A stretch of 64,000 bases of DNA. It comes from Thermosynechococcus sp. NK55a (GTDB taxonomy: Bacteria > Cyanobacteriota > Cyanobacteriia > Thermosynechococcales > Thermosynechococcaceae). The DNA is taken from contig NC_023033.1 of assembly GCF_000505665.1 (NCBI RefSeq), positions 2,074,313 through 2,138,312 of the forward strand, given 5' to 3'. Under the pieces are notes generated by a model. That model was not told where the DNA came from. It made no database searches and worked only from the letters and a program-made list of their open reading frames with translations. Position numbers and translations under genes: made by a program. Shown piece after piece: positions 31,881 through 54,290 of the stretch. Each line of letters starts with the position of its first letter. Position 1 is the stretch's first letter.

Positions 31881-34800
31881 ATGCCCCAGATTTACGACAA
31901 CACCAGCCAAGTACTTGCCGATGGGCTGCGCCAGTTCATCGGCAGCGCCCAGTCCTGCGCCTTCTGCGTTGGCTACCTCAACCTACGGGGTTGGGACCAA
32001 TTGGCCGACCTCGTGGACAAGTTGCCGGGAAGAACAGAAAACGCCGCCTGCCGCGTGCTGGTTGGTATGCACCGTCCCCCCGAAGAAGAAATGAAAGTGC
32101 TCGCCAGCCTCAGGCGCGGCGATGAGATAGTGGACGGTCCCACGCTCGCCCGACTCAAGCGCCACATGACCGAAAGCTTCAAGCAGCAACTGGAGTTTGG
32201 TGTACCATCGGCCCAAGCCGAACGCACGCTCCGCCAGTTGGCTGCCCAGCTTCGCGCGCGCAAGGTCTTCCTGAAAGCGTTTCTCCGCTATCCGTTGCAT
32301 GCCAAGCTGTACCTCGTGCGGCGCAACGATCCCGTCACACCCCTCATCGGCTTTGTCGGCAGCAGCAACCTTACCCTGGCCGGCCTGTCGCACCAGGGCG
32401 AGTTGAATGTGGATGTCGTCGAACAAGATGCTGCCACGAAATTGCAAGCCTGGTTTGATGAGCGGTGGCAGGATGGATTAGCGATCGACCTGAGTGATAC
32501 GCTCGCTGAACTCATTGAGAGAAGTTGGGCGCGTACCGATTTGGTTCGCCCGTATCTGCTCTATCTCAAGATCGCCTACCACCTCTCCGAGGAGGCGCGC
32601 CAAGGTGAGCGCGAGTTCCGCCTCCCTCGCATTTTCACTGAGAAAGGCACACCGTTGCTCGATTTTCAGGAGCGGGCCGTTTCCCTGGCGGCCCATTATC
32701 TCTACCGCCGGGGTGGTGTGTTGCTTGGCGATGTGGTAGGGCTGGGCAAGACGTTGATGGCGACGGCCATTGCCCGCATCTTTCAGGAGGATGACCAGAG
32801 CAACACGCTAGTCGTTTGCCCGCCGAAGCTCGCGCCCATGTGGGAGCAGTATCTGCAGACCTACGAAATCCACGGCCGCGTGCTCTCACTCGGCAAAGTC
32901 GAAACGTTGGGGCGCGACGACGGGCCGCGCTACCGCCTCCTCATCATTGACGAAAGCCACAACCTGCGGAACCGTAAAAGCAAGCGCTACCGCGCCTTGC
33001 GCGACTACATCGAGCGCAACGAGCCACGGGTGCTCTTGCTTACCGCCACACCTTACAACAAACACTTTACCGACCTGGGCAACCAACTGCGGCTTTTTCT
33101 GGACGAAAACCAAGACCTGCACGTACGACCCGAACGGTTCTTCCAAGCATGGGCAGCGGATGGAAAAAGCGAAATGGACTTCATCGCGCGCTTCCAAACC
33201 TCACCGCACTCATTGCGTGCCTTTGAGCAAAGCCCCTACGCGGAGGACTGGCGCGACCTGATGCGCCTCTTTCTAGTACGACGCACGCGCCAGTTCATCA
33301 TGAGCCACTACGCGACGTTCGACGAGGAAAAGCAGCGTTACTACGTCCTACTGAACGACAGGCCTGCATACTTTCCGCTGCGCGTGCCCAAGCGTCTCGA
33401 GTTCCCCATCCGAGAAAACGATCCCACCGACCAGTACGCACGGCTCTTCCGCGATGATGTCGTGGAGGTCATCGAGCGGCTCACCATCCCTCGCTATGGC
33501 CTGGCGCAGTACCTCGTCGATCATGCCGATCGCGATGCGAAAGGCGATGAAAAGCGCATCCTCGATAACCTCAACCGTGCGGGCCGCCGCCTCATCGGCT
33601 TTTGCCGGACCAACCTCTTCAAGCGGCTCGAATCGAGTGGCCACAGTTTTCTGCTCTCCGTGCGCCGGCACATCCTGCGCAATCTTGTCACGTTGTATGC
33701 GCTCGAACACGGTCTGCACATTCCCATCGGCACGCAGGATGCCGCCATGCTCGATACGGCGGTAAGCGACAGCGACGCCGATGAAGAGTTCGCGGTAACC
33801 CAAGAAAACCTCGCAGCAACAGCCAACGACAGCATTCCAGAAGAGGCAGCCCTTGAGAGTACATCCAGACCTTTTGAGGCGTTTCGGAATCGTGCTCGTT
33901 CGATCTACTATACCTATGCGACGCAATTCCGAAATCGCCGAAATCGCCGAAATCGCTTCGATTGGCTTGACCTGAAGTTCTTCCGCCCTGAACTCCGGCA
34001 GGCGCTCGAAGAGGACACCACTGCGCTGCTGGGCATCCTCGCACGTATCCGTACGTGGAACCCCAACCGCGATGCCAAGCTTGAAGAACTTACCAGGCTG
34101 CTGACCACACAGCACAGCAATGATAAAGTGCTGATCTTTACCCAGTTTGCCGATACTGCGCAGTACTTGAAACGCGAGCTGAGCAGAAGAGGCCTCCGCG
34201 ATCTCGAGGTCGTGACCAATCAGGCCAACGATCCGGTGGCACTGGCACGGCAGTTTAGCCCGTCCTCGAACGGCGGCCTGCGTCCGGGCGAACAGGAGCT
34301 GCGCATCTTGATTGCCACCGATGTGCTGGCTGAGGGGCAGAACCTGCAAGACGCCCACATCATCGTCAATTACGACCTCCCCTGGGCAATCATTCGCCTT
34401 ATCCAGCGTGCCGGCCGCGTGGATCGTATCGGTCAGCAACATGACACGATCCTGGTGTACTCGTTCCTGCCTGCCGAGGGGGTTGAGCGGCTCATCCGGC
34501 TGCGTCAGCGACTTTTCCTTCGGCTTCAGCAAAACCGGGAAGTCATCGGCACCGACGAAACCTTCTTCGGCGAGGAAGCGGCTAACAAACTGCGCGATCT
34601 CTACACCGAAAAAGCCGGCACACTCGACGACGACCAAGCCGACGAAGACATTGACCTGGCCAGTCTGGCATTCCAAGTTTGGAAGAGCGCTTCCGAGCCC
34701 GATCAAAAGGAAGCCATCGCCCTGCCGTCTATTGTCTCTGCCACACGCGCACTCCCAGAGACCGCCGATCCAGCGCAGCATCCGCCTGGTGTGATTACCT

Positions 34801-35366
34801 ACCTCCGCTACCCCGATGGCACCGACGTCCTTGTGCGTGTGGATGAACGCGGTGAACTGGTGTCCCAGTCCATCTCAGCCATCTTTAGCGCGGCTGCCTG
34901 CGCACCAGACGAGCCAGCGCTGCCGCGGGCAGTAAACCATCACGAACTCGTTGCCCGTTGCGTGGGCATTGCCACTGAGGAGCAAACCGCCCTCGGCGGT
35001 CAACTCGGTTCGCTGCGCAGCGTGCGCCACAAGCTCTACGAACGGCTCAAGCGCTATCGCCAGCAGCTTCAGGCCAAGCCCACCCCCTCCTCTTCAGCCA
35101 TCCTGCCAAAGCTCGATAGCGTGCTCGATCGGATCTGGCGATACCCGCTCAAGCAGGCCGCTAAGGAAGCCCTCAGCCGGCAGATGCACCTGGACATCAC
35201 CGATGAAGCACTGCTCGAGCTGGTGCTGCGCCGCGCAGCGGACGAGAACCTCTGTGAAGTCACCACCGAGGACGATCACGTGCCAGCCGAACCGCGCATC
35301 ATCTGCTCGATGGGACTGGCGCTTGCTTCAACCATGCCAGCAAACACGGGAGATGACAAGCAATGA
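31881..35366 (+). CDS. PLD-like nuclease fused to SNF2-family helicase (defence)
   Basis: A 1161-residue protein. The N-terminal ~200 residues form a phospholipase D-like nuclease half-site: HAKLYLV at residue 140, then GSSNLTLAGL. A SNF2/DEAD helicase follows: Q-like LLDFQERAV, Walker A GDVVGLGKT (near residue 287), DESH at residue 357 and LLTATPYN. The second RecA domain has VLIFTQFADTA, IATDVLAEGQNLQ and QRAGRVDRIGQ (near residue 845). One HKD motif implies dimerisation to form a complete active site. Proteins of this plan are linked to phage defence. It starts at ATG 31881 and overlaps the methyltransferase start in ATGA. Composition and lack of HIP1 octamers point to transfer. Confidence 0.9.
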   Translation: MPQIYDNTSQVLADGLRQFIGSAQSCAFCVGYLNLRGWDQLADLVDKLPGRTENAACRVLVGMHRPPEEEMKVLASLRRGDEIVDGPTLARLKRHMTESFKQQLEFGVPSAQAERTLRQLAAQLRARKVFLKAFLRYPLHAKLYLVRRNDPVTPLIGFVGSSNLTLAGLSHQGELNVDVVEQDAATKLQAWFDERWQDGLAIDLSDTLAELIERSWARTDLVRPYLLYLKIAYHLSEEARQGEREFRLPRIFTEKGTPLLDFQERAVSLAAHYLYRRGGVLLGDVVGLGKTLMATAIARIFQEDDQSNTLVVCPPKLAPMWEQYLQTYEIHGRVLSLGKVETLGRDDGPRYRLLIIDESHNLRNRKSKRYRALRDYIERNEPRVLLLTATPYNKHFTDLGNQLRLFLDENQDLHVRPERFFQAWAADGKSEMDFIARFQTSPHSLRAFEQSPYAEDWRDLMRLFLVRRTRQFIMSHYATFDEEKQRYYVLLNDRPAYFPLRVPKRLEFPIRENDPTDQYARLFRDDVVEVIERLTIPRYGLAQYLVDHADRDAKGDEKRILDNLNRAGRRLIGFCRTNLFKRLESSGHSFLLSVRRHILRNLVTLYALEHGLHIPIGTQDAAMLDTAVSDSDADEEFAVTQENLAATANDSIPEEAALESTSRPFEAFRNRARSIYYTYATQFRNRRNRRNRFDWLDLKFFRPELRQALEEDTTALLGILARIRTWNPNRDAKLEELTRLLTTQHSNDKVLIFTQFADTAQYLKRELSRRGLRDLEVVTNQANDPVALARQFSPSSNGGLRPGEQELRILIATDVLAEGQNLQDAHIIVNYDLPWAIIRLIQRAGRVDRIGQQHDTILVYSFLPAEGVERLIRLRQRLFLRLQQNREVIGTDETFFGEEAANKLRDLYTEKAGTLDDDQADEDIDLASLAFQVWKSASEPDQKEAIALPSIVSATRALPETADPAQHPPGVITYLRYPDGTDVLVRVDERGELVSQSISAIFSAAACAPDEPALPRAVNHHELVARCVGIATEEQTALGGQLGSLRSVRHKLYERLKRYRQQLQAKPTPSSSAILPKLDSVLDRIWRYPLKQAAKEALSRQMHLDITDEALLELVLRRAADENLCEVTTEDDHVPAEPRIICSMGLALASTMPANTGDDKQ
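33929..33955 (+). repeat. Three tandem 9-bp units inside the helicase gene
   Basis: CCGAAATCG repeats three times in frame and encodes an RNR-RNR-RNR stretch just ahead of FDWLDLKFF, between the two helicase lobes. It is a short slippage-prone stretch; number of units may vary between strains. Confidence 0.7.
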
Positions 35367-38300
35367 ACACCCTTCTCCAACGCATCGAATCGTGTTTGAA
35401 TGCCGCTGGCTCACCGCAGAAGCTCGGCGAGCTCTTCTGCCAAACCCTCCACTGGAGCGCACCGCGAGGCTTGACGCCGCGCACGCTCGATCTCGGCGCG
35501 CCCATCAGAGCGAGCATCACGCTCCATCCGGTCGCGCAGCTTTCGGGCCTGCCGGTCTATCGCGTCGTCTGGCCTGAGGATCGGCTGCCGGGCATCACCG
35601 CCCGCCGCGCCGTGCAGCGTGCGCTCAAGCCGATGCACGCCGAGCACCTCCTCTGCTACGTCACCTCTGACCAGCGGCAAGTGGCCTTCACCTGGACGCG
35701 CGAGCGACCCGACGGCAAAATCGAACTCCGCACCCTGCCGTACGAGCTCGGCTCCCCTGCCCGCACTACCGTCGAGCGCCTGGCCGAACTCGCCTTCACC
35801 CTGGAGGAACTCCAACACGGCGAACCTCCCCTCCCCACCCTCACCGACAAACTCAACCGCGCCTTCGATGTGGAAGCGGTCACGAAAAGGTTTTATCAGG
35901 AACTCGCCAACTGGTTCTTCTGGGCGCGCGGGCACGTGCGGTTCCCGATGCCGCCGACCGAAAAGAACCGCGACGCCTACATCTCCCAGAGCCTCATCCG
36001 TCTCATCACGCGCCTCATCTTCTGCTGGTTTGTGAAAGAAATGGGGCTGATTCCCCGCGAACTCTTCGATCTAGGTACACTCTCGAAGCTTCTCAAAAAC
36101 GGCGACAAGCTACCGCAAAGCAAGCAGACTACCTTCTACAAGGCGATCCTGCAAAATCTTTTCTTCGCCACGCTCAATCAGGAAATCGGAAAGCGGCAGT
36201 TCCGCAAACGCAATAAAGACCCGCGCGGGCGCGACCCGCATTGGGGAATTACCAATCTCTACCGGTACGAGGACCAATTCACCGATCCAAACGAGTTCCT
36301 GCGACTGGTCGAGCGCATCCCCTTTCTCAACGGTGGCCTGTTTGAGTGCCTGGACCAGGTCTTTCGCGCCGAGGAAAACCGCCCCGACATCCGCATTGAC
36401 GGCTTCTCCGATCATCCGAAAAACCCGCTCTCCGTGCCCGATTTCCTGTTCTTCGGCGACGAACGCACGGTGGACCTTTCCGAGGCCTATGGGCAAGCCA
36501 AATACAAACGCGCCACCGTGCGCGGTTTGATCCACATCTTCAACCGGTACAACTTTACGGTCACCGAATCCACACCCCTCGACCAGGAAGTGGCGCTCGA
36601 TCCCGAACTGGCTGGCAAGGTCTTCGAGAACCTGCTGGCGGCCTACAACCCGGAAACCGCCACGACCGCGCGGAAAGCCACAGGCTCCTACTACACCCCG
36701 CGCCCCATCGTCGAATACATGGTGGATGAGGCGCTGCTGGCGTATCTCAAGACGAAGCTCGATGAGGCCCACCCGTCAGACACCAACGAAGCCCGCCTTC
36801 GCCACCTGCTGGCTTACAATGACGATTCGCATCAGTTCAGTCAGGCGGAGGTCGAGAAGCTCATCGCCGCCATTGACAACCTCAAGGCGCTCGACCCGGC
36901 CTGCGGCTCCGGCGCGTTCCTGATGGGACTCCTGCACAAGCTGGTCTTCATCCTCGGCAAACTCGACCCGCACAACGAACGCTGGAAACAACGGCAGATT
37001 GCCAAAGCCAGCGAAATCCCCGACGCTACCGTCCGCGAAAAGACACTGGCTGACATTGAAAAATCGTTCGCCGCTGGCGAACTCGACTACGGACGCAAAC
37101 TCTACCTCATCGAGAACTGCATTTACGGCGTGGACATTCAGCCCATCGCCGTCCAGATCGCCAAGATGCGCTTCTTCATCTCGCTGACGATTGACCAAAA
37201 AATTGATCCGTCCGCGCCCAACCTCGGCATCCGCCCGCTGCCGAACCTCGAAACCAAATTCGTCGCCGCCAACACCCTCATCGGCCTCGAGCGACCGGCC
37301 CAAAAGATGCTGCGCAACCCGCAGATTGACGCCAAGGAAGCCGAGCTGCGGCAGGTGCGCGAACGCCACTTCACCGCCCGCACCCCGGCCACGAAGGCCG
37401 AGTGCCGGGAACTCGACGCCAAACTCCGCGCCGAAATCAGAGACCTGCTTCGCGCCGACGGTTTCCCACGCGAAACCACCGAGAAACTCGCCAACTGGAA
37501 TCCCTACGACCAGAACGCCTCCGCCGACTTCTTCGACCCGGAGTGGATGTTTGGGATACGGGATGGGTTCGACATTGTGATCGGGAATCCGCCGTATCTC
37601 GAGTCCCGTAGCCGTGCGTTTCCGAGCGAATTCAAGGAGAGCCTCTTGGCTGCCGTAGAACGACGATGGCCAGACATCGACGTTTCCTCTTACGTCACAC
37701 GCGGCGCTGACCTACTTGTGTACTTCCTTGAGACGAGCCTTGCGCTGATTCAGCAACATGGGAATGTCGTACTCATCACGCAAAACGCTTGGTTGGATAC
37801 TGAGTATGGCAAACGTTTTCAGGAATTCTTGCTTCGGGTAACACACGTCAGTTTGGTAGTGGACAGCGATTTTAAGCACTTTGACAGCAGCGCTGGGCCG
37901 AATGTCAATACCGTGATTACGTTTTTTCGCGGTCGCAACCCGGAAGCGCAAAAGGCAATCACGTTTGCCAGATTCACAGGCCACCTTGAAGCTGGTGTGA
38001 TTCCTTCTTCTGGTGAGATGGTTGCTGAGACAACCGCCAATGTTCGGTTTCGCCAATACCGATACGATTCAGGGACACTCCGAACAACGAAATGGGGCAT
38101 ATTGCTCTCCTTGGATGACGCAGCTTTGGATTTGCTTTCAATTTTGGAAAAACAGGGCACGCTTATAGAGCGTATTCCAAAAGCACAACTGTCAGTCGGT
38201 CAGGGGCTGAACTTGACGAAGGAATTCTTTTTGGGACATGCTGAGGTGGAAAAGTTGTCATTCGTGCGCAAGGCATTAATTCCTATCCTAACGGCGGCAG

Positions 38301-38899
38301 ATGGAGCCCCGTTCGAAATCAGCGGCACGCACCACCATCTAGCCGACGCGCGGCGGCTAAGCAAAAGTGAAATTGCAGAACTCCGCAAGAATGGCATCGA
38401 AGCTTTTGATCCGACCGCAACGACCAAAATTCCACCTGTGCTGATACTGCCGCGTGGAATTGGAAGGCATTTTTGCGCCTTTAACCCAGTAAAAGCATAC
38501 TCTGCGAGTGCAGTCGATATCTATCCAACGACAGGCGGTGTTCCTGAGGTCGTGCTGCTAAACCTCTGGGTAATTTTGAATTCGTCCGCGACTTGGTTGC
38601 TGCGGGAAGTGGCTGGCCGAAAAAATCTTGGTGGTGGCATGTTAAAAGCAGAAGCCACAGACCTTGCGACTCTGCCCTTGTACATCGAGATTGGGGAAAC
38701 TCGCCGAATCCTAAAAATAGCCGACGCTCTCCGTAGGCGTCAATCTTACGAGCCACTTGCTGAACTAGAAACCGAAGAACATCAGGCAATAGACGCACTG
38801 GTTTTCGAAGCCCTCGGCTTAACCGTCGCCAAGCGCAGCCAAATCGTCGACAGTCTGAAGAGGAGCCTTTATGAACGTGCAAGGAAGGCCCGGACTTGA
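35363..38899 (+). CDS. Eco57I-type adenine DNA methyltransferase (restriction-modification)
   Basis: A 1178-residue class I methyltransferase. TGSYYTPRPIVEYMV is the AdoMet region start (motif X), LDPACGSGAFL at residue 511 is motif I, YGVDIQPIAVQIAKMRF follows, and IGNPPYLESRS (NPPY at residue 742) is the N6-adenine catalytic motif. The ~430-residue N-terminal part is of the type seen in large Eco57I/PglX-like proteins; no PD-(D/E)XK nuclease motif is obvious. The C-terminal ~430 residues should hold the target-recognition domain. Sampled GC falls from 57-67% before the NPPY motif to 43-48% after it, indicating recombination. It is translationally coupled to the helicase gene. Confidence 0.9.
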   Translation: MNTLLQRIESCLNAAGSPQKLGELFCQTLHWSAPRGLTPRTLDLGAPIRASITLHPVAQLSGLPVYRVVWPEDRLPGITARRAVQRALKPMHAEHLLCYVTSDQRQVAFTWTRERPDGKIELRTLPYELGSPARTTVERLAELAFTLEELQHGEPPLPTLTDKLNRAFDVEAVTKRFYQELANWFFWARGHVRFPMPPTEKNRDAYISQSLIRLITRLIFCWFVKEMGLIPRELFDLGTLSKLLKNGDKLPQSKQTTFYKAILQNLFFATLNQEIGKRQFRKRNKDPRGRDPHWGITNLYRYEDQFTDPNEFLRLVERIPFLNGGLFECLDQVFRAEENRPDIRIDGFSDHPKNPLSVPDFLFFGDERTVDLSEAYGQAKYKRATVRGLIHIFNRYNFTVTESTPLDQEVALDPELAGKVFENLLAAYNPETATTARKATGSYYTPRPIVEYMVDEALLAYLKTKLDEAHPSDTNEARLRHLLAYNDDSHQFSQAEVEKLIAAIDNLKALDPACGSGAFLMGLLHKLVFILGKLDPHNERWKQRQIAKASEIPDATVREKTLADIEKSFAAGELDYGRKLYLIENCIYGVDIQPIAVQIAKMRFFISLTIDQKIDPSAPNLGIRPLPNLETKFVAANTLIGLERPAQKMLRNPQIDAKEAELRQVRERHFTARTPATKAECRELDAKLRAEIRDLLRADGFPRETTEKLANWNPYDQNASADFFDPEWMFGIRDGFDIVIGNPPYLESRSRAFPSEFKESLLAAVERRWPDIDVSSYVTRGADLLVYFLETSLALIQQHGNVVLITQNAWLDTEYGKRFQEFLLRVTHVSLVVDSDFKHFDSSAGPNVNTVITFFRGRNPEAQKAITFARFTGHLEAGVIPSSGEMVAETTANVRFRQYRYDSGTLRTTKWGILLSLDDAALDLLSILEKQGTLIERIPKAQLSVGQGLNLTKEFFLGHAEVEKLSFVRKALIPILTAADGAPFEISGTHHHLADARRLSKSEIAELRKNGIEAFDPTATTKIPPVLILPRGIGRHFCAFNPVKAYSASAVDIYPTTGGVPEVVLLNLWVILNSSATWLLREVAGRKNLGGGMLKAEATDLATLPLYIEIGETRRILKIADALRRRQSYEPLAELETEEHQAIDALVFEALGLTVAKRSQIVDSLKRSLYERARKART

Positions 38900-38902
38900 A
38901 CC

Positions 38903-39028
38903 CTGGCGGCGAAGCGTGCCGACCCGGCGGCGGACACCAGCGCCTGGGAGCGGGAGATAGACCAAATCGTCTATCGCCTCTACGGCCTGACGCCGGAAGA
39001 GATCAAGATCGTTGAGGAGGGCACCTAA
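38903..39028 (+). pseudogene. Leftover C-terminal tail of another methyltransferase
   Basis: Directly after the methyltransferase stop, and in the same frame, 41 codons read LAAKRADPAADTSAWERE, then IDQIVYRLYGLTPEEIKIVEEGT and stop. The WEREIDQxVYxLYGLTxEE pattern is the usual end of Eco57I-type methyltransferases. It has no start codon. It is GC-rich like the front half of the upstream gene, so it is probably the gene's former 3' end, cut off when the recognition domain was replaced. Confidence 0.65.
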
Positions 39029-39165
39029 TGAGCCGACACGATCGTCGCGCCTTGGACGAGGTGGTGTTTGATGTGTTGGGTTTGACGGCTGGGGAGCGGG
39101 AGGCGGTGTATGAGGCGGTGGTGGCGCTGGTGCGGGCGCGGCTGGAAAAGGCCAAAAGCGTATAG
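39028..39165 (+). CDS. 45-residue ORF, detached methyltransferase C-terminal module
   Basis: A small ORF (ATG 39028, overlapping the previous stop in TAATG) encoding RALDEVVFDVLGLTAGEREA and VYEAVVALVRARLEKAKSV. It aligns with the last 40 residues of the upstream methyltransferase (AIDALVFEALGLTVAKRSQIV...), sharing the AxDxxVFxxLGLT core. It may be translated as a small helical protein, or be a relic of a further recombined gene. It ends two bases before the transposase start. Confidence 0.5.
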   Translation: MSRHDRRALDEVVFDVLGLTAGEREAVYEAVVALVRARLEKAKSV

Positions 39166-39194
39166 CCATGCCCTACGATCCGGAAAGGCACCAT
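39130..39194. repeat. 65-bp direct repeat, left copy
   Basis: This stretch, spanning the end of the small ORF and the start of the RAYT gene, recurs at 40103-40167 with about four differences. The two copies bracket the RAYT gene. This suggests duplication of the RAYT unit followed by loss of most of the second copy. Confidence 0.8.
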
Positions 39195-40103
39195 CGGCGC
39201 AGCATCCGGCTGAAGGGGTACGATTACACCCAGCCGGGGGCGTATTTCATCACCATTTGCACCCACGATCGGGCATGCCTGTTTGGCGAGGTGGTGGAGG
39301 GCCAGATGCGGTTGAATGAGGCGGGACACATCGCACAACAATGTTGGACGGACATACCGAACCATTTCCCGCATATCCAATTGGATGAATTCATCATCAT
39401 GCCGAACCATGTTCATGGCATTCTGGTGATTGTCCATCATGTTCATCATGTGGGGGCACGGCATGCCGTGCCCCCACATGGTATGCCCCCACATGGTATG
39501 CCCCCACATGGTATGCCCCCACATGGTATGCCCCCACATGGTATGCCCCCACATGGTATGCCCCCACATGGTATGCCCCCACATGGTATGCCCCCACATG
39601 GTATGCCCCCACATGGTATGCCCCCACATGGTATGCCCCCACATGGTATGCCCCCACATGGTATGCCCCCACATGGTATGCCCCCACATGGTATGCCCCC
39701 ACATGGTATGCCCCCACATGGTATGCCCCCACATGGTATGCCCCCACATGGTATGCCCCCACATGGTATGCCCCCACATGGTATGCCCCCACATGGTATG
39801 CCCCCACCCCCAATGGCCTCCCCTAACCCCACCGTGGAACAGTTCGGCAAACCCGTTCACGGTTCCCTACCCACCATCGTGCGGTCGTTCAAATCCGCCA
39901 CCACCCGCCACATCAACATCCTGCGTGGCACGCCCGGCGCCCCCGTCTGGCAACGCAATTATTACGAACACATCATCCGCAACGAAGACGCCCTGCATCG
40001 CATCCGCCAGTACATCGCCACCAATCCCCTGCGCTGGCATCTGGACCGGGAGAACGCCGACCGCACGGGCAGAAACCCCGACGAGAAAATGTGGTTTGGC
40101 TAG
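39168..40103 (+). CDS. REP-associated tyrosine transposase (RAYT) with repeat insertion
   Basis: A 311-residue Y1/IS200-like transposase of the RAYT group. RSIRLKGYDYTQPGAYFITI opens the domain, MPNHVHGILV holds the His-x-His metal site, and WQRNYYEHIIRNE supplies the catalytic Tyr; FKSATTRHIN and a terminal NPLRWH complete the pattern. Between the HxH motif and the Tyr helix lies an insert of about 22 PPHGM units, encoded by 15-bp repeats. The frame is open throughout, but an insert of some 110 residues in a compact catalytic domain may affect activity. It lies in the acquired island. Confidence 0.9.
   Translation: MPYDPERHHRRSIRLKGYDYTQPGAYFITICTHDRACLFGEVVEGQMRLNEAGHIAQQCWTDIPNHFPHIQLDEFIIMPNHVHGILVIVHHVHHVGARHAVPPHGMPPHGMPPHGMPPHGMPPHGMPPHGMPPHGMPPHGMPPHGMPPHGMPPHGMPPHGMPPHGMPPHGMPPHGMPPHGMPPHGMPPHGMPPHGMPPHGMPPHGMPPHGMPPPPMASPNPTVEQFGKPVHGSLPTIVRSFKSATTRHINILRGTPGAPVWQRNYYEHIIRNEDALHRIRQYIATNPLRWHLDRENADRTGRNPDEKMWFG
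39447..39480. repeat. 34-bp perfect palindrome (REP-like) inside the RAYT gene
   Basis: The sequence from 39447 to 39480 is its own reverse complement (arms CATGTGGGGGCACGGCA / TGCCGTGCCCCCACATG). GGGGCACGGC-type palindromes are common REP elements next to RAYT genes. Here it lies within the coding region and its right arm merges with the 15-bp tandem repeat. Confidence 0.85.
39471..39807. repeat. About 22 tandem copies of a 15-bp unit
   Basis: CCCCCACATGGTATG is repeated without change 22 times (39471-39800), then ends in a partial copy. On the plus strand in the transposase frame it gives Pro-Pro-His-Gly-Met. The unit has no stop codon in any of the six frames, so long artefactual frames appear on both strands. 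The first ten bases of the unit equal the right arm of the adjacent palindrome, indicating how the array arose. Confidence 0.95.
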
Positions 40104-40167
40104 TGCGGGCGCAGCTGGAAAAGGCCAAAAGCGTATAGCCATGCCCTACAACCCGGAAAGGCGCCAT
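40103..40167. repeat. 65-bp direct repeat, right copy
   Basis: Second copy of the 39130-39194 segment, starting at the last base of the RAYT stop codon. It contains the end of the small methyltransferase-tail ORF and a new RAYT-type start codon at 40141. Confidence 0.8.
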
Positions 40168-40350
40168 GCATGTAGGGACGACGCGCTGCGTCGTTCCCCC
40201 TACGATCCGGAAAAGCACCATCGGCGCAGCATCCGCCTGAAGGGGTACGATTACACCCAGCCGGGGGCGTATTTTGTGATCCTTAGTTACGAATGATCAG
40301 GCCCGTCTTTTTGGGAAGGTGGTGGCAGCGGAAATGTAAACCGATGCTGG
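40141..40350 (+). pseudogene. Truncated second RAYT copy
   Basis: From ATG 40141 the frame reads MPYNPERRHACRDDALRRSP, then repeats the RAYT start as YDPEKHHRRSIRLKGYDYTQ and stops at 40296. In another frame homology continues as NDQARLFGKVVAAEM (compare HDRACLFGEVVEGQM in the intact gene). A REP-like palindrome has been inserted near codon 10. The catalytic part is missing. The right island boundary lies between here and ndhD1. Confidence 0.75.
40172..40203. repeat. REP-like palindrome in the truncated RAYT copy
   Basis: Arms GTAGGGACGACGC (40172-40184) and GCGTCGTTCCCCCTAC (40188-40203) are inverted around GCT, with two extra bases on the right arm. This is a REP-type hairpin different from the one at 39447. 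It interrupts the second RAYT copy, which suggests that REP movement took place here. Confidence 0.75.
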
Positions 40351-49952: not shown

Positions 49953-52178
49953 ATGGCAACTAAATTTCCGAAGTTTAGCCAAGACCTCGCACAGGATCCG
50001 ACCACACGCCGGATTTGGTACGCCATCGCCATGGCTCACGACTTTGAAAGCCACGATGGCATGACTGAGGAGAATCTTTACCAAAAGATTTTTGCCTCCC
50101 ACTTTGGACATCTGGCCATCATCTTCCTGTGGGTGTCTGGTAGCTTATTCCACGTTGCGTGGCAGGGGAACTTTGAGCAATGGGTTCAAGACCCTGTTAA
50201 CACCCGTCCCATCGCCCATGCGATCTGGGATCCCCAATTTGGCAAAGCCGCAGTGGACGCTTTCACCCAAGCTGGGGCTTCTAACCCTGTGGACATTGCC
50301 TACTCTGGTGTCTATCACTGGTGGTACACCATCGGTATGCGCACCAACGGTGACCTGTACCAAGGTGCCATCTTCCTGCTGATTCTGGCTTCGCTGGCTC
50401 TCTTTGCTGGCTGGCTGCACTTGCAACCCAAATTCCGTCCTAGCCTCTCTTGGTTCAAAAATGCTGAATCGCGGTTGAACCACCACTTGGCAGGTCTATT
50501 TGGGGTTAGCTCCTTAGCTTGGGCAGGCCACCTGATTCACGTAGCCATTCCTGAGTCCCGTGGTCAGCACGTGGGCTGGGATAACTTCCTTAGCACCATG
50601 CCCCACCCCGCCGGTCTAGCACCTTTCTTTACGGGGAACTGGGGCGTCTATGCCCAAAACCCTGACACGGCTAACCACCTCTTTGGCACGGCACAGGGTG
50701 CTGGCACCGCGATTCTCACCTTCTTGGGTGGTTTCCATCCTCAAACGGAGTCCCTGTGGCTCACGGATATGGCTCACCACCACCTTGCCATTGCGGTGCT
50801 CTTTATTGTGGCGGGTCACATGTACCGCACCCAATTTGGGATTGGCCACAGTATTAAAGAGATGATGGATGCCAAGGACTTCTTTGGCACTAAGGTGGAA
50901 GGCCCCTTCAATATGCCTCACCAAGGCATCTATGAAACCTATAACAACTCACTGCACTTCCAGTTGGGTTGGCACTTAGCCTGCTTGGGTGTGATCACCT
51001 CCTTGGTGGCACAACACATGTACTCACTGCCACCCTATGCCTTCATTGCCCAGGACCACACAACCATGGCTGCCCTTTATACCCATCACCAGTACATTGC
51101 TGGCTTCTTGATGGTGGGTGCCTTTGCCCATGGTGCTATCTTCCTAGTGCGGGACTATGATCCCGCCCAAAATAAGGGCAATGTGTTGGATCGGGTGCTG
51201 CAACACAAAGAGGCGATCATTTCGCACCTGAGCTGGGTGTCCCTCTTCTTGGGCTTCCACACCTTGGGGCTCTATGTCCACAACGATGTGGTGGTGGCCT
51301 TTGGTACCCCTGAGAAGCAGATCTTGATTGAGCCGGTCTTTGCCCAGTTCATTCAAGCAGCTCATGGAAAACTACTCTATGGGTTTGATACATTGCTGTC
51401 GAATCCCGATAGCATTGCCAGCACTGCTTGGCCGAACTATGGCAACGTCTGGCTACCCGGCTGGCTCGATGCCATCAATAGTGGTACCAACTCCTTGTTC
51501 CTAACGATTGGCCCTGGGGACTTCTTGGTGCACCATGCCATTGCCCTAGGCTTGCACACTACCACTCTGATTTTGGTCAAAGGTGCGTTGGATGCCCGTG
51601 GCTCCAAACTGATGCCAGATAAGAAAGACTTCGGCTATGCCTTCCCCTGCGATGGGCCTGGCCGTGGTGGTACCTGCGATATTTCCGCATGGGATGCCTT
51701 CTATCTGGCGATGTTCTGGATGCTGAACACCATTGGCTGGGTAACCTTCTATTGGCACTGGAAACACTTGGGTGTTTGGGAAGGCAATGTGGCCCAGTTC
51801 AATGAAAACTCTACCTACCTCATGGGTTGGCTGCGAGACTACCTGTGGCTGAACTCGTCCCAGCTCATCAATGGCTACAATCCCTTCGGCACCAATAACC
51901 TGTCGGTGTGGGCATGGATGTTCCTGTTTGGTCACTTGGTGTGGGCTACGGGCTTCATGTTCCTGATTAGCTGGCGTGGTTATTGGCAAGAGCTGATTGA
52001 GACCTTGGTATGGGCGCACGAGCGCACTCCCTTGGCCAATCTTGTGCGTTGGAAAGATAAGCCTGTGGCGCTGTCGATTGTTCAAGCCCGGTTGGTGGGT
52101 CTGGCACACTTCAGCGTTGGCTATGTCTTGACCTATGCGGCCTTCCTAATTGCTTCAACCGCAGCCAAGTTTGGTTGA
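49953..52178 (+). CDS. psaB: Photosystem I P700 apoprotein A2
   Basis: A 741-residue partner of PsaA. It begins [20 protein letters not shown], shows [20 protein letters not shown], and supplies the other two FX Cys in [15 protein letters not shown] (near residue 556-565). The axial His of P700 lies in the tenth helix region. GGAGGAGA precedes the start codon. A clear terminator follows at 52205-52232, ending the psaAB transcript. Confidence 0.98.
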
Positions 52179-52628
52179 TCCACTCACTAGTTAGCTTTTG
52201 TTAGTCCCCTGCCTCTGTGGTGGGGGATTTTTGTTTCCTATGGAGAAGGTGACCGAGTGACTGGAGGCACAAATCCCTTGAGAGATTGACAATAACTTGA
52301 CAAAAGTCTAGTTTTATGGGCAGGGCAAAGGACACGGTTCAGTCATTATTGATTGTTGAATGCCCAAGGGAACGGTGGGTGAGGCGATTCAATGGGCTGC
52401 TGCGTTGGACATGTCAACACGGTTAACTGTAGTTTGCTTTTAGTTTCTTATCTTTTTGTATCTCCTTCTATGGAATAGAGCTTTATTGCACTAAAGGTTA
52501 GCAACTTGTAATGTATCTCAGTATCCTAAAGATTTACTTAAAATCTGTTTTCAGAAACTTGACTTCATTGTTATTATAGGACTGAATTTCTCGGTTAGTT
52601 TTTGCTGCTCTCACTGGAGATACGAGTA
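52179..52628. other. Intergenic region between psaB and the MscS-like gene
   Basis: The left part carries the psaB terminator. The remaining ~390 bases become AT-rich towards the right and should contain the promoter of the MscS-like gene. I see no ORF, RNA or repeat in it. Confidence 0.55.
52205..52232 (+). terminator. Rho-independent terminator of psaAB
   Basis: A nine-pair stem, TCCCCTGCC against GGTGGGGGA with two G-T wobbles and a five-base loop, starts 27 bases after the psaB stop and is followed by TTTTTG. This is the clearest intrinsic terminator on the plus strand. Confidence 0.85.
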
Positions 52629-54290
52629 ATGCAGGGTAGACTCACATTCTTTATTATTTCTACATTTCCGTACAGAAACTATATTGAACAGTTATTGGCA
52701 CAAGTCGATCTTGCAGAACCTTCTCAGATAGTTGGTGAAAATTCAGCTGGCCTTACCTTAGGTCTGGATAATTGGTGGGGGCTTTTAGTGCGGGTGATCA
52801 TCGCACTTGCTTTGTTATTCATTGGTTGGATTGTTGCAATTGTTTTGGCAAGGGTAACAAGATCAATTTTGAAGCGGCTGCGTCTTGATGAATGGTTGAG
52901 CCAGTTCTTGGGTGAGAATGAATCGCTGCGAAACCTATCACTAACAGCAATTCTCTCAGGAGTTGTTTTTTGGATCATCTTTTTGCTGGGAGTGGTGGCC
53001 TTCTTGGATGCGCTGCGACTCACAATAGTTTCCCAGCCTCTCAATGCTTTTCTGAATCAAATTTTTACTTTCCTGCCAAAACTAGGGGTTGCTATTCTGC
53101 TTTTGGATTTGGCTTGGGTCGTGGCAACCATATCGAAAATGCTCGTGACTCAATCTGCCCGTTCTCTCAATTTGGATCGTTCATTACCGCTGGAATCTGG
53201 AAAAGAGGACACTCCAGAGGGGACTCCCACAATGTCTGTGGCTGAGATGTTGGGAAATACTCTCTACTGGTTTGTGTTTCTCTTCTTTCTGCCCTTGATT
53301 TTAGGGGTGCTTAATCTAGAAGGCTCGCTGCAGCCTGTGCAAAATCTCTTAAACGATATCCTAGGGACACTGCCCTTTATATTGAAGGCAGTAATCATTG
53401 CTATTGTTGGCTGGTTTATTGCGCGAATTGTGCGCAGCTTAGTCATTAACTTAATGACATCTATGGGAATTCAACGCATTGGCCAGCGTTTGGGCCTAGG
53501 GCAGGCTAGTCTGGGTGAATCCCTGGCAACGGTTATCGGTACAATCATCTATGTCCTAATTTTGATTCCGACGGCGATCGCTAGCCTTGAGGCGCTGCAA
53601 ATTCAAGCCATTACGGCACCGGCAACGGCAATGCTCAATGAAGTGCTGACGGCCTTGCCAAGAATTTTTACGGCCGCAATTATTCTCATTTTGGCCTATG
53701 TCATCGGTCGCTTTGTGGCTGAGATGGTGCAAAACTTCCTGCAAACAATTGGGTTTGATCAGGTTCTTGTCTGGTTGGGCATTGAATCTCTGCCTGCCAC
53801 GGCTGTAGAACCTGCGGAGCGTCCTGCCCATTGGCGCCAACCGTCTGAAGTGGTTGGCATTGTTACTTTGGTGGGAACAATGTTTTTTGGGGCGATCGCG
53901 GCTGTGGATGTGCTGGATATCCCTGCCCTGACTGCCTTTGTCAGCGCCTTGATGATCATCCTCGGTCGGGTACTGGTGGGTATCCTCATCTTGGCCGTGG
54001 GCCTATACTTTGCCAATTTGGCGTTTCGGATTCTCGCCGCTTCTGGAACCTCCCAGGCCCGCTTTCTAGGCCAAGCGGCCCGAATTGCCATCATGACGTT
54101 TGTGGGGGCAATGGCACTCCAGCACATGGGCGTTGCTACCAGTATTGTGAACCTTGCCTTTGGCCTTCTTTTTGGTTCAATTGCGGTGGCGATCGCCCTG
54201 GCTTTTGGATTGGGATGTCGCGGGATTGCCGCAGCCCAAGTGGAAGAGTGGATTGCCTTGCTCAAGGGTAGAAACTCGAATCCAGAGTGA
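52629..54290 (+). CDS. MscS-like conserved TM-helix repeat membrane protein
   Basis: A 553-residue polytopic protein with about 11-12 hydrophobic helices. Three internal repeats share the pattern pairing an amphipathic LNxxLxxLPxxxxA segment with a helix: near residues 135-180, 245-300 and 335-390 (for example LNDILGTLPFILKAVIIAIV and LNEVLTALPRIFTAAIILIL), each ending in a G-x-x-x(I/L)-G segment. This is the conserved TM-helix family related to small mechanosensitive channels. The usual MscS cytoplasmic beta domain is not seen; the C-terminus is a short tail. ATG 52629 has GGAGA upstream; TTG 52602 is less likely. Confidence 0.85.
   Translation: MQGRLTFFIISTFPYRNYIEQLLAQVDLAEPSQIVGENSAGLTLGLDNWWGLLVRVIIALALLFIGWIVAIVLARVTRSILKRLRLDEWLSQFLGENESLRNLSLTAILSGVVFWIIFLLGVVAFLDALRLTIVSQPLNAFLNQIFTFLPKLGVAILLLDLAWVVATISKMLVTQSARSLNLDRSLPLESGKEDTPEGTPTMSVAEMLGNTLYWFVFLFFLPLILGVLNLEGSLQPVQNLLNDILGTLPFILKAVIIAIVGWFIARIVRSLVINLMTSMGIQRIGQRLGLGQASLGESLATVIGTIIYVLILIPTAIASLEALQIQAITAPATAMLNEVLTALPRIFTAAIILILAYVIGRFVAEMVQNFLQTIGFDQVLVWLGIESLPATAVEPAERPAHWRQPSEVVGIVTLVGTMFFGAIAAVDVLDIPALTAFVSALMIILGRVLVGILILAVGLYFANLAFRILAASGTSQARFLGQAARIAIMTFVGAMALQHMGVATSIVNLAFGLLFGSIAVAIALAFGLGCRGIAAAQVEEWIALLKGRNSNPE

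What the first reader, a model, noticed from the sequence alone, without database searches (positions are those of the whole stretch)
31881..38899. Two-gene candidate defence system: PLD-SNF2 helicase coupled to an Eco57I-type methyltransferase
Seen: one ORF joins a phospholipase D-like half-site (HAKLYLV, then GSSN) to a complete SNF2 helicase; its stop overlaps the start of a large N6-adenine methyltransferase (NPPY) in ATGA. Known: SNF2 helicases, PLD nucleases and Eco57I-like methyltransferases occur in DISARM-, BREX- and Dpd-like systems, usually with more subunits. Inference: this pair could be a minimal system in which methylation marks self and the helicase-nuclease degrades unmarked DNA. 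No drmA, drmB, pglZ or brxC genes are present nearby.
Basis: partly seen in the sequence, partly recalled or inferred. Interest (0 to 1): 0.8.

Follow-up and report, generated by a model that had tools for sequence, protein, structure and literature searches.

The report
Two-gene PLD-SNF2/methyltransferase restriction system
A hot-spring cyanobacterium carries a stand-alone pair of genes, a DNA motor fused to a DNA-cutting domain and a DNA-marking enzyme, that recurs as a pair across many bacteria, plasmids and phage-like contigs and most likely works as a compact restriction-modification defence whose target is changed by swapping part of the marking enzyme.

Summary
An intact PLD half-site/SNF2 fusion (31881-35366) overlaps by 4 bp (ATGA) an Eco57I/PglX-like m6A methyltransferase gene (35363-38899) between housekeeping genes. 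The genome has no PglZ and no MZB/DUF1998 domain; its one DUF499 gene belongs to a separate island 185 kb away. The pair stands alone: 42/386 cyanobacterial genomes carry the PLD-SNF2, all 33 full-length loci with ample flanks have a same-strand MTase within 4.3 kb, and no third family recurs in more than 8 of 56 loci. It also occurs on plasmids of other phyla and on phage-like contigs. PLD-SNF2 proteins 81-92% identical pair with MTases whose C-terminal half, or whole sequence, differs, implying that the MTase supplies target recognition for both activities. Downstream of the window MTase lie two stubs of earlier MTase tails, a record of swaps exactly after NPPY. The pair on Synechocystis 6803 pSYSX includes, by elimination, M.Ssp6803IV (GAm6AGGC), treated as an orphan. 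Best reading: a split ISP/Type III-like ATP-dependent RM system with a PLD nuclease, distinct from DISARM, BREX, BREX-related and ARMADA systems. Restriction itself is untested.

The parts
31881..35366 (+). PLD-SNF2 protein, 1161 aa: putative motor-nuclease (restriction) subunit
   Evidence: Pfam PLDc_2, SNF2-rel_dom, Helicase_C; invariant catalytic residues in 42 homologues; dN/dS 0.15; AlphaFold model matches SNF2 motors
32298..32402 (+). PLD half-site: HAK (res 140-142), GSSN (160-163), E174
   Evidence: invariant in alignments A3 and A4
32736..34433 (+). SNF2 motor from VGLGKT (motif I) through DESH (32949-32960) to the end of Helicase_C
35363..38899 (+). Eco57I/PglX-like N6-adenine methyltransferase, 1178 aa: putative modification and recognition subunit
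   Evidence: PF07669 E 1.2e-26; fold matches CamA, BrxX, MmeI, DrdV, LlaGI MTase part
37586..37597 (+). NPPY motif; homology to other alleles ends immediately after it (recombination point)
   Evidence: DNA homology ends at 37600 (L012) and 37597 (L014)
37601..38896 (+). allele-specific C-terminal part of the MTase (putative target-recognition region)
   Evidence: does not align with the G003 allele; no match in 386 cyanobacterial genomes
38900..39028 (+). stub 2: out-of-gene remnant of another MTase C-terminus
   Evidence: 70% identical to the live C-terminus of the L014 MTase, E 6e-14, and to ends of other MTases
39028..39165 (+). stub 1: 45-codon remnant of a further MTase tail, possibly a small ORF
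   Evidence: homologous to the window MTase tail (0/2000 shuffles) and present at L012, L014, L027; 14 synonymous to 4 non-synonymous codon changes against L027
31950..40350 (.). exchanged island holding the pair, stubs and RAYT
   Evidence: identity to G003 falls from about 95% in flanks to about 80% inside

Best explanation
The two genes form a complete ATP-dependent restriction-modification system that works like a split Type ISP or Type III enzyme. Shown by sequence: a PLD half-site fused to an SNF2 motor in one subunit and an N6-adenine MTase with a variable C-terminal region in the other. Inferred: the MTase reads a short, probably asymmetric site and methylates it on self DNA. When it meets an unmethylated site, the SNF2 subunit docked on it hydrolyses ATP and moves along DNA; two PLD half-sites then meet, as in dimeric PLD nucleases such as SauUSI and BfiI, and cut. 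Specificity changes by replacing the C-terminal half of the MTase, or the whole MTase, while the motor-nuclease stays the same.
For: Strict two-gene linkage, 33/33, and no third recurrent family. Pair on plasmids of Pelobacter, Rhodococcus, Paenarthrobacter and Synechocystis and on phage-like contigs, with the same 4-bp overlap in Rhodococcus and Paenarthrobacter. Invariant PLD, motor and MTase motifs. PLD-SNF2 81-92% identical while MTase C-terminal parts or whole MTases differ: if the motor-nuclease chose its own site, such swaps would expose the host. The Synechocystis paired MTase is by elimination M.Ssp6803IV, an m6A enzyme with the asymmetric site GAAGGC. SauUSI shows that a PLD-SF2 chain can restrict DNA.
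Against: No restriction, binding or methylation was measured for the window proteins. The acidic residue after HxK is R147 in this subfamily, so nuclease activity is not certain. The window and Synechocystis MTases align over only about 23-28% identity. The MTase recognition region has no confident model. Synechocystis is reported not to express an active RM system.
Confidence: 0.68

Rival explanations
1. A reduced DISARM/BREX/ARMADA/BREX-related module that needs core subunits encoded elsewhere in the genome.
For: The helicase has sub-family-level similarity to DrmD, BrxH and DpdE; the MTase resembles PglX/BrxX and DrmMI; PLD-SNF2 fusions occur in Type-2 BREX-related systems; the genome has one DUF499 gene.
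Against: No MZB/DUF1998 (drmB, YprA) or PglZ domain in the genome; the DUF499 island has its own helicase and MTase; 33/33 loci have the pair and no third recurrent gene; the pair is complete on small plasmids.
Confidence: 0.08
2. Orphan-type regulatory methylase next to a Type IV-like, modification-dependent PLD-SNF2 nuclease; the two genes are neighbours but do not share a target.
For: SauUSI, a Type IV enzyme, has a PLD-SF2 chain; defence genes cluster; M.Ssp6803IV is treated as an orphan.
Against: Linkage is near absolute across phyla, with overlapping reading frames in several; no recognition domain such as SRA was found on the PLD-SNF2 protein.
Confidence: 0.1
3. The MTase is itself a Type IIG restriction enzyme with an N-terminal nuclease, and PLD-SNF2 is a helper.
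For: Best PADLOC matches are Type IIG enzymes; the N-terminal 150 residues are predicted as a confident alpha/beta domain; one weak hit to a Holliday-junction resolvase fold.
Against: No conserved D...(D/E)xK signature in the N-terminal domain of 34 paired MTases; Pfam finds no nuclease there, and only 4 of 34 carry a DUF559/MTES_1575 nuclease match.
Confidence: 0.1
4. A decaying locus: the window pair is no longer active after recombination at the MTase 3' end.
For: Stubs downstream; a relic of the MTase start at the same site in G005; split copies in other genomes.
Against: Both window ORFs are full length with all motifs, and dN/dS is about 0.15.
Confidence: 0.04

Closest known systems
Type ISP RM enzymes (LlaGI, LlaBIII)
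   Same: Nuclease, SF2 motor, MTase and C-terminal recognition region; the MTase model matches LlaGI/LlaBIII over 365 residues (Z 15.1-15.5)
   Different: Those are one chain with an Mrr-family nuclease (PMC4666363 abstract); here two chains with a PLD nuclease and an SNF2 motor
Type III RM (EcoP15I-like)
   Same: Two genes, modification/recognition chain plus motor-nuclease chain; asymmetric m6A site likely
   Different: Different MTase class, motor subfamily and nuclease fold (own knowledge); no Type III Mod/Res match at family level
SauUSI
   Same: PLD nuclease fused to an SF2 motor (PMC7913695)
   Different: Type IV, cuts modified DNA through an SRA domain, has no partner MTase
CglI / NgoAVII
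   Same: RM systems with PLD nuclease and SF2 ATPase
   Different: PLD sits with a B3 recognition domain in R, ATPase is a separate chain, with Z1 domain
Type-2 BREX-related (BR) systems
   Same: N-terminal HKD plus SNF2 helicase with an N6-MTase (PMC12839542)
   Different: DUF499 ATPase and DUF3780 are core there and absent here; cyanobacterial BR helicases score 134-147 bits against about 1500-1870 for the core family, and their MTases do not match
ARMADA and DISARM class 1
   Same: RapA-like SNF2 helicase plus PglX-like MTase (PMC12458937)
   Different: YprA-like or DrmA/DrmB components required; none linked here
PADLOC C3a139 (HKD+Snf2) and PHROG 26785
   Same: Same PLD plus helicase domain order; C3a139 matches all 42 homologues; PHROG 26785 matches P0001 with 240 bits
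   Different: Best match of P0001 to C3a139 is partial and modest (147 bits); neither model is described as part of an MTase pair

Membership tests
Restriction-modification system (general) | MTase gene strictly linked to a nuclease gene | tested here: met
   33/33 loci with ample flanks
Restriction-modification system (general) | MTase methylates a defined motif | tested here: inconclusive
   A motif is known only for the Synechocystis relative, by elimination
Restriction-modification system (general) | cleavage of unmethylated DNA | not testable with these tools
   needs experiment
Type ISP | nuclease, motor, MTase and recognition domain in one chain | tested here: not met
   two ORFs, 4-bp overlap
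Type ISP | Mrr-family nuclease | tested here: not met
   nuclease candidate is PLD
Type IIG | active nuclease domain in the MTase chain | tested here: inconclusive
   no conserved (D/E)xK in the N-terminal domain, but the fold was only partly modelled
DISARM | drmA and drmB present | tested here: not met
   no MZB/DUF1998 domain in the genome; no PADLOC match in nine flanking proteins
BREX | PglZ present | tested here: not met
   no PglZ domain in the genome
Type-2 BR | DUF499 ATPase in the locus | tested here: not met
   the only DUF499 hit is at 1926484, in another island
Type-2 BR | DUF3780 protein | tested here: not met
   absent from G000
Type-2 BR | N-terminal HKD fused to SNF2 | tested here: met
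   but distant in sequence from true BR helicases
ARMADA | YprA-like helicase in the locus | tested here: not met
   no third recurrent gene; no MZB domain in the genome
SauUSI-type Type IV | modified-base recognition domain on the motor-nuclease chain and no cognate MTase | tested here: not met
   Pfam finds no such domain and an MTase is always linked

The most novel reading that the evidence does not exclude
A widespread, so far unnamed class of two-gene ATP-dependent RM systems in which one conserved PLD-SNF2 chain serves as a plug-in motor-nuclease for interchangeable MTase/recognition chains. New specificities are installed by replacing the MTase gene 3' of the NPPY codons, leaving stacked tails of former alleles downstream. 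In Synechocystis 6803 the 'orphan' M.Ssp6803IV is the modification half of such a system and the PLD-SNF2 gene beside it is its unrecognised restriction half.
Probability: 0.5. Interest if true: 0.72.

Novelty: new variant of a known kind. Interest (0 to 1): 0.6.

Why it matters
If true, a simple two-gene restriction system has been overlooked in about one in nine sampled cyanobacterial genomes, including a model strain said not to express an active RM system. It gives the M.Ssp6803IV methylase a restriction partner that can be tested by a single knockout, bears on transformation barriers in cyanobacteria, and offers a natural example of re-targeting a motor-nuclease by swapping half of its partner gene.

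Tried and rejected
1) DISARM, BREX, BR and ARMADA membership: core genes missing. 2) Simple vertical inheritance of the island in G000 and G003: rejected, because dS is 0.79 inside against 0.17 in pgi, with sharp identity steps near 31.95 and 40.35 kb. 3) Two copies in the Kapabacteria-labelled MAG: the two contig-end loci repeat the same flanking genes, so they look like one locus read twice across a circular overlap, with frameshift errors. 4) Donor of the window MTase C-terminus: none in 386 cyanobacterial genomes. 5) RAYT as part of the system: found beside close relatives only, not in the wider family. 6) The MTase fold model is weak (mean pLDDT 53; residues 824-1113 below 50), so the recognition region got no fold. 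7) Hagemann 2018 is not held; my recollection that it assigns M.Ssp6803IV to slr6050 and found it essential is unverified and not counted as evidence. 9) No sigma-70-type promoter or terminator pattern near the start, which says little.

Full report
WHAT IS THERE. The window lies in a closed 2.52-Mb genome (G000; window = 2074313-2138312), cyanobacterial by its gene content (ndhD, ndhF) and its relatives. ORF 31881-35366 encodes a 1161-aa protein with an N-terminal PLD domain and a complete SNF2 motor. Its stop overlaps, in ATGA, the start of a 1178-aa Eco57I-family methyltransferase at 35363-38899. In 42 homologues the PLD residues H140, K142, GSSN and E174 and the motor motifs are invariant. 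The acidic residue that often follows HxK is R147 here, a real caveat for nuclease activity; more distant relatives keep it. The AlphaFold model of the first protein (mean pLDDT 71.7) matches SNF2 motors (Z up to 24.7). The MTase model is weak (53.4), but its middle matches CamA, BrxX/PglX, MmeI, DrdV and the MTase part of LlaGI/LlaBIII.

DOES THE PAIR STAND ALONE. The PLD-SNF2 protein is found in 42 of 386 sampled cyanobacterial genomes, 24 of 142 genera. I fetched up to 20 kb around these and around more distant relatives. All 33 full-length loci with at least 6 kb downstream and 5 kb upstream have a same-strand Eco57I-type MTase, at most 4.3 kb away and usually downstream (31 of 37 loci with 6 kb downstream; median gap 672 bp). 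Related genomes hold about three Eco57I-domain genes each, so chance linkage is negligible, although loci from one genus are not independent. All-against-all clustering of neighbours finds two recurrent families only, PLD-SNF2 (56 loci) and MTase (51 loci); the next reach 8 loci, one of them DUF29. The same pair is on plasmids of Pelobacter, Rhodococcus, Paenarthrobacter and Synechocystis and on IMG/VR contigs, some with phage-type genes nearby. Rhodococcus and Paenarthrobacter keep the 4-bp overlap. The window genome has no PglZ and no MZB/DUF1998 domain. Its single DUF499 gene sits 185 kb away in an island with its own helicase and MTase.

WHO CARRIES SPECIFICITY. Pairwise comparison shows the motor-nuclease conserved while the MTase changes. 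Window and G003 PLD-SNF2 are 81% identical and the MTase N-terminal parts 83%, but the C-terminal parts do not align. L015/L016 and L013/L016 PLD-SNF2 are 91% identical while MTase cores are 47-48% and C-termini do not match. Within one genus (g58) near-identical MTases differ in discrete blocks from about NPPW onwards. If the PLD-SNF2 chose its own target, such swaps would expose the host genome. The simplest reading is that the MTase chain recognises the site for both methylation and restriction. This is inference, but it makes a sharp prediction (step 5).

A RECORD OF SWAPS. DNA homology between the window and two other alleles stops right after the NPPY codons: 37600 against L012, 37597 against L014. 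Downstream of the window MTase stop lie two stubs. One (38900-39028) is 70% identical to the live C-terminus of the L014 MTase and matches the ends of several other MTases. The other (39028-39165) is homologous to the window MTase's own tail (0 of 2000 shuffles reach the score) and is also found at L012, L014 and L027. The order suggests tail 1, then tail 2 (the state of L014), then the present allele. Stub 1 shows 14 synonymous to 4 non-synonymous codon changes against L027, so it was under protein-level selection until recently, or still is as a small ORF; that remains open. The window's C-terminal half has no match in 386 cyanobacterial genomes.

AN EXCHANGED ISLAND. G003 has the pair at the same site, but identity falls from about 95% in both flanks to about 80% inside 31.95-40.35 kb, and dS is 0.79 for PLD-SNF2 against 0.17 for pgi. 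The island was thus exchanged or acquired separately. Five or more congeners have a hydrolase gene there instead, and G005 keeps a short relic of the MTase start. Low dN/dS (0.14-0.15) argues that the genes are functional.

LINK TO A KNOWN METHYLASE. On Synechocystis 6803 plasmid pSYSX the PLD-SNF2 (45% identical end to end) is followed by a small gene, a VapC toxin and a DNA methyltransferase. From my knowledge of the Kazusa names the gene order corresponds to slr6047-slr6050. Papers citing Hagemann 2018 report that pSYSX encodes M.Ssp6803IV and M.Ssp6803V, that IV methylates GAm6AGGC and that V is slr6095 (PMC6604393, PMC7296061, PMC6560206). In the 100 of 106 kb of pSYSX displayed, the only annotated DNA methyltransferases are this one and slr6095. 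By elimination the paired MTase is M.Ssp6803IV, an m6A enzyme with an asymmetric site, as expected for an ISP/Type III-like system. [quoted passage not shown] I recall, but could not verify here, that this methylase was reported essential; if so, an active partner nuclease would explain it.

MECHANISM AND RIVALS. The best-supported mechanism is a split ISP/Type III-like RM system with a PLD nuclease (confidence 0.68). Shown: domains, invariant catalytic residues, linkage, allele swapping. Inferred: complex formation, MTase-directed recognition, translocation, PLD dimerisation and cleavage of unmethylated DNA. SauUSI (PLD-SF2 chain, dimer through its PLD domains; PMC7913695) shows that such a chain can restrict; CglI/NgoAVII show PLD plus ATPase within RM systems. 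The rivals (reduced DISARM/BREX-type module, orphan methylase plus Type IV nuclease, IIG enzyme with helper, decaying locus) are weaker for the reasons listed.

NOVELTY. I found no paper in the held library that describes this two-gene arrangement. PLD-SNF2 fusions are known in Type-2 BR systems, but those have DUF499 and DUF3780, a distant helicase (134-147 bits against about 1500-1870 for the core family) and an MTase that does not match. The library lacks most subscription papers and REBASE was not available, so earlier naming cannot be excluded. I rate it a new variant of a known kind.

Noticed in passing
window 39469-39807: The RAYT-type transposase ORF (39168-40103) contains an in-frame array of 22.6 perfect 15-bp repeats (TGCCCCCACATGGTA), absent from the G003 copy (L012:14854-15504).
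   Followed up: partly
window 40103-40290: A second partial copy of the stub 1 end plus RAYT 5' end lies after the RAYT gene, suggesting duplication of this junction.
   Followed up: partly
L170 (G000:C1:1913500-1932500) and L166 (G003:C1:755000-770000): One chromosomal site (beside a gene starting MAFSSIAVRELPIF) holds a DUF499-centred BREX-related island in the window genome and a Type-2 BR island with DUF3780 and HKD-SNF2 in the congener G003.
   Followed up: partly
L079:9784-10422, L082:14683-15336, L083:14562-15044: On phage-like contigs the pair is followed by a DprA-like gene (PF02481, below its curated cut-off), a possible third component in that branch.
   Followed up: partly
alignment A2 (34 paired MTases): Four paired MTases carry a DUF559/MTES_1575 nuclease match and two an AlbA_2 match.
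   Followed up: no
L068:1741-1885 (G005): A 145-bp relic of the MTase start (67.6% nt identity) lies at the same chromosomal site, so the island was once there and decayed.
   Followed up: yes
L026/L027 (BPHK01000001.1 contig ends): A Kapabacteria-labelled hot-spring MAG encodes a 74-76% identical PLD-SNF2, which suggests cross-phylum transfer or mis-binning; the contig ends are redundant and carry frameshifts.
   Followed up: partly
L159 (pSYSX 51619-54240): Next to the Synechocystis pair lie multiubiquitin, E2/UBC, ThiF and DUF6527 genes, which look like a bacterial ubiquitin-like conjugation locus.
   Followed up: no
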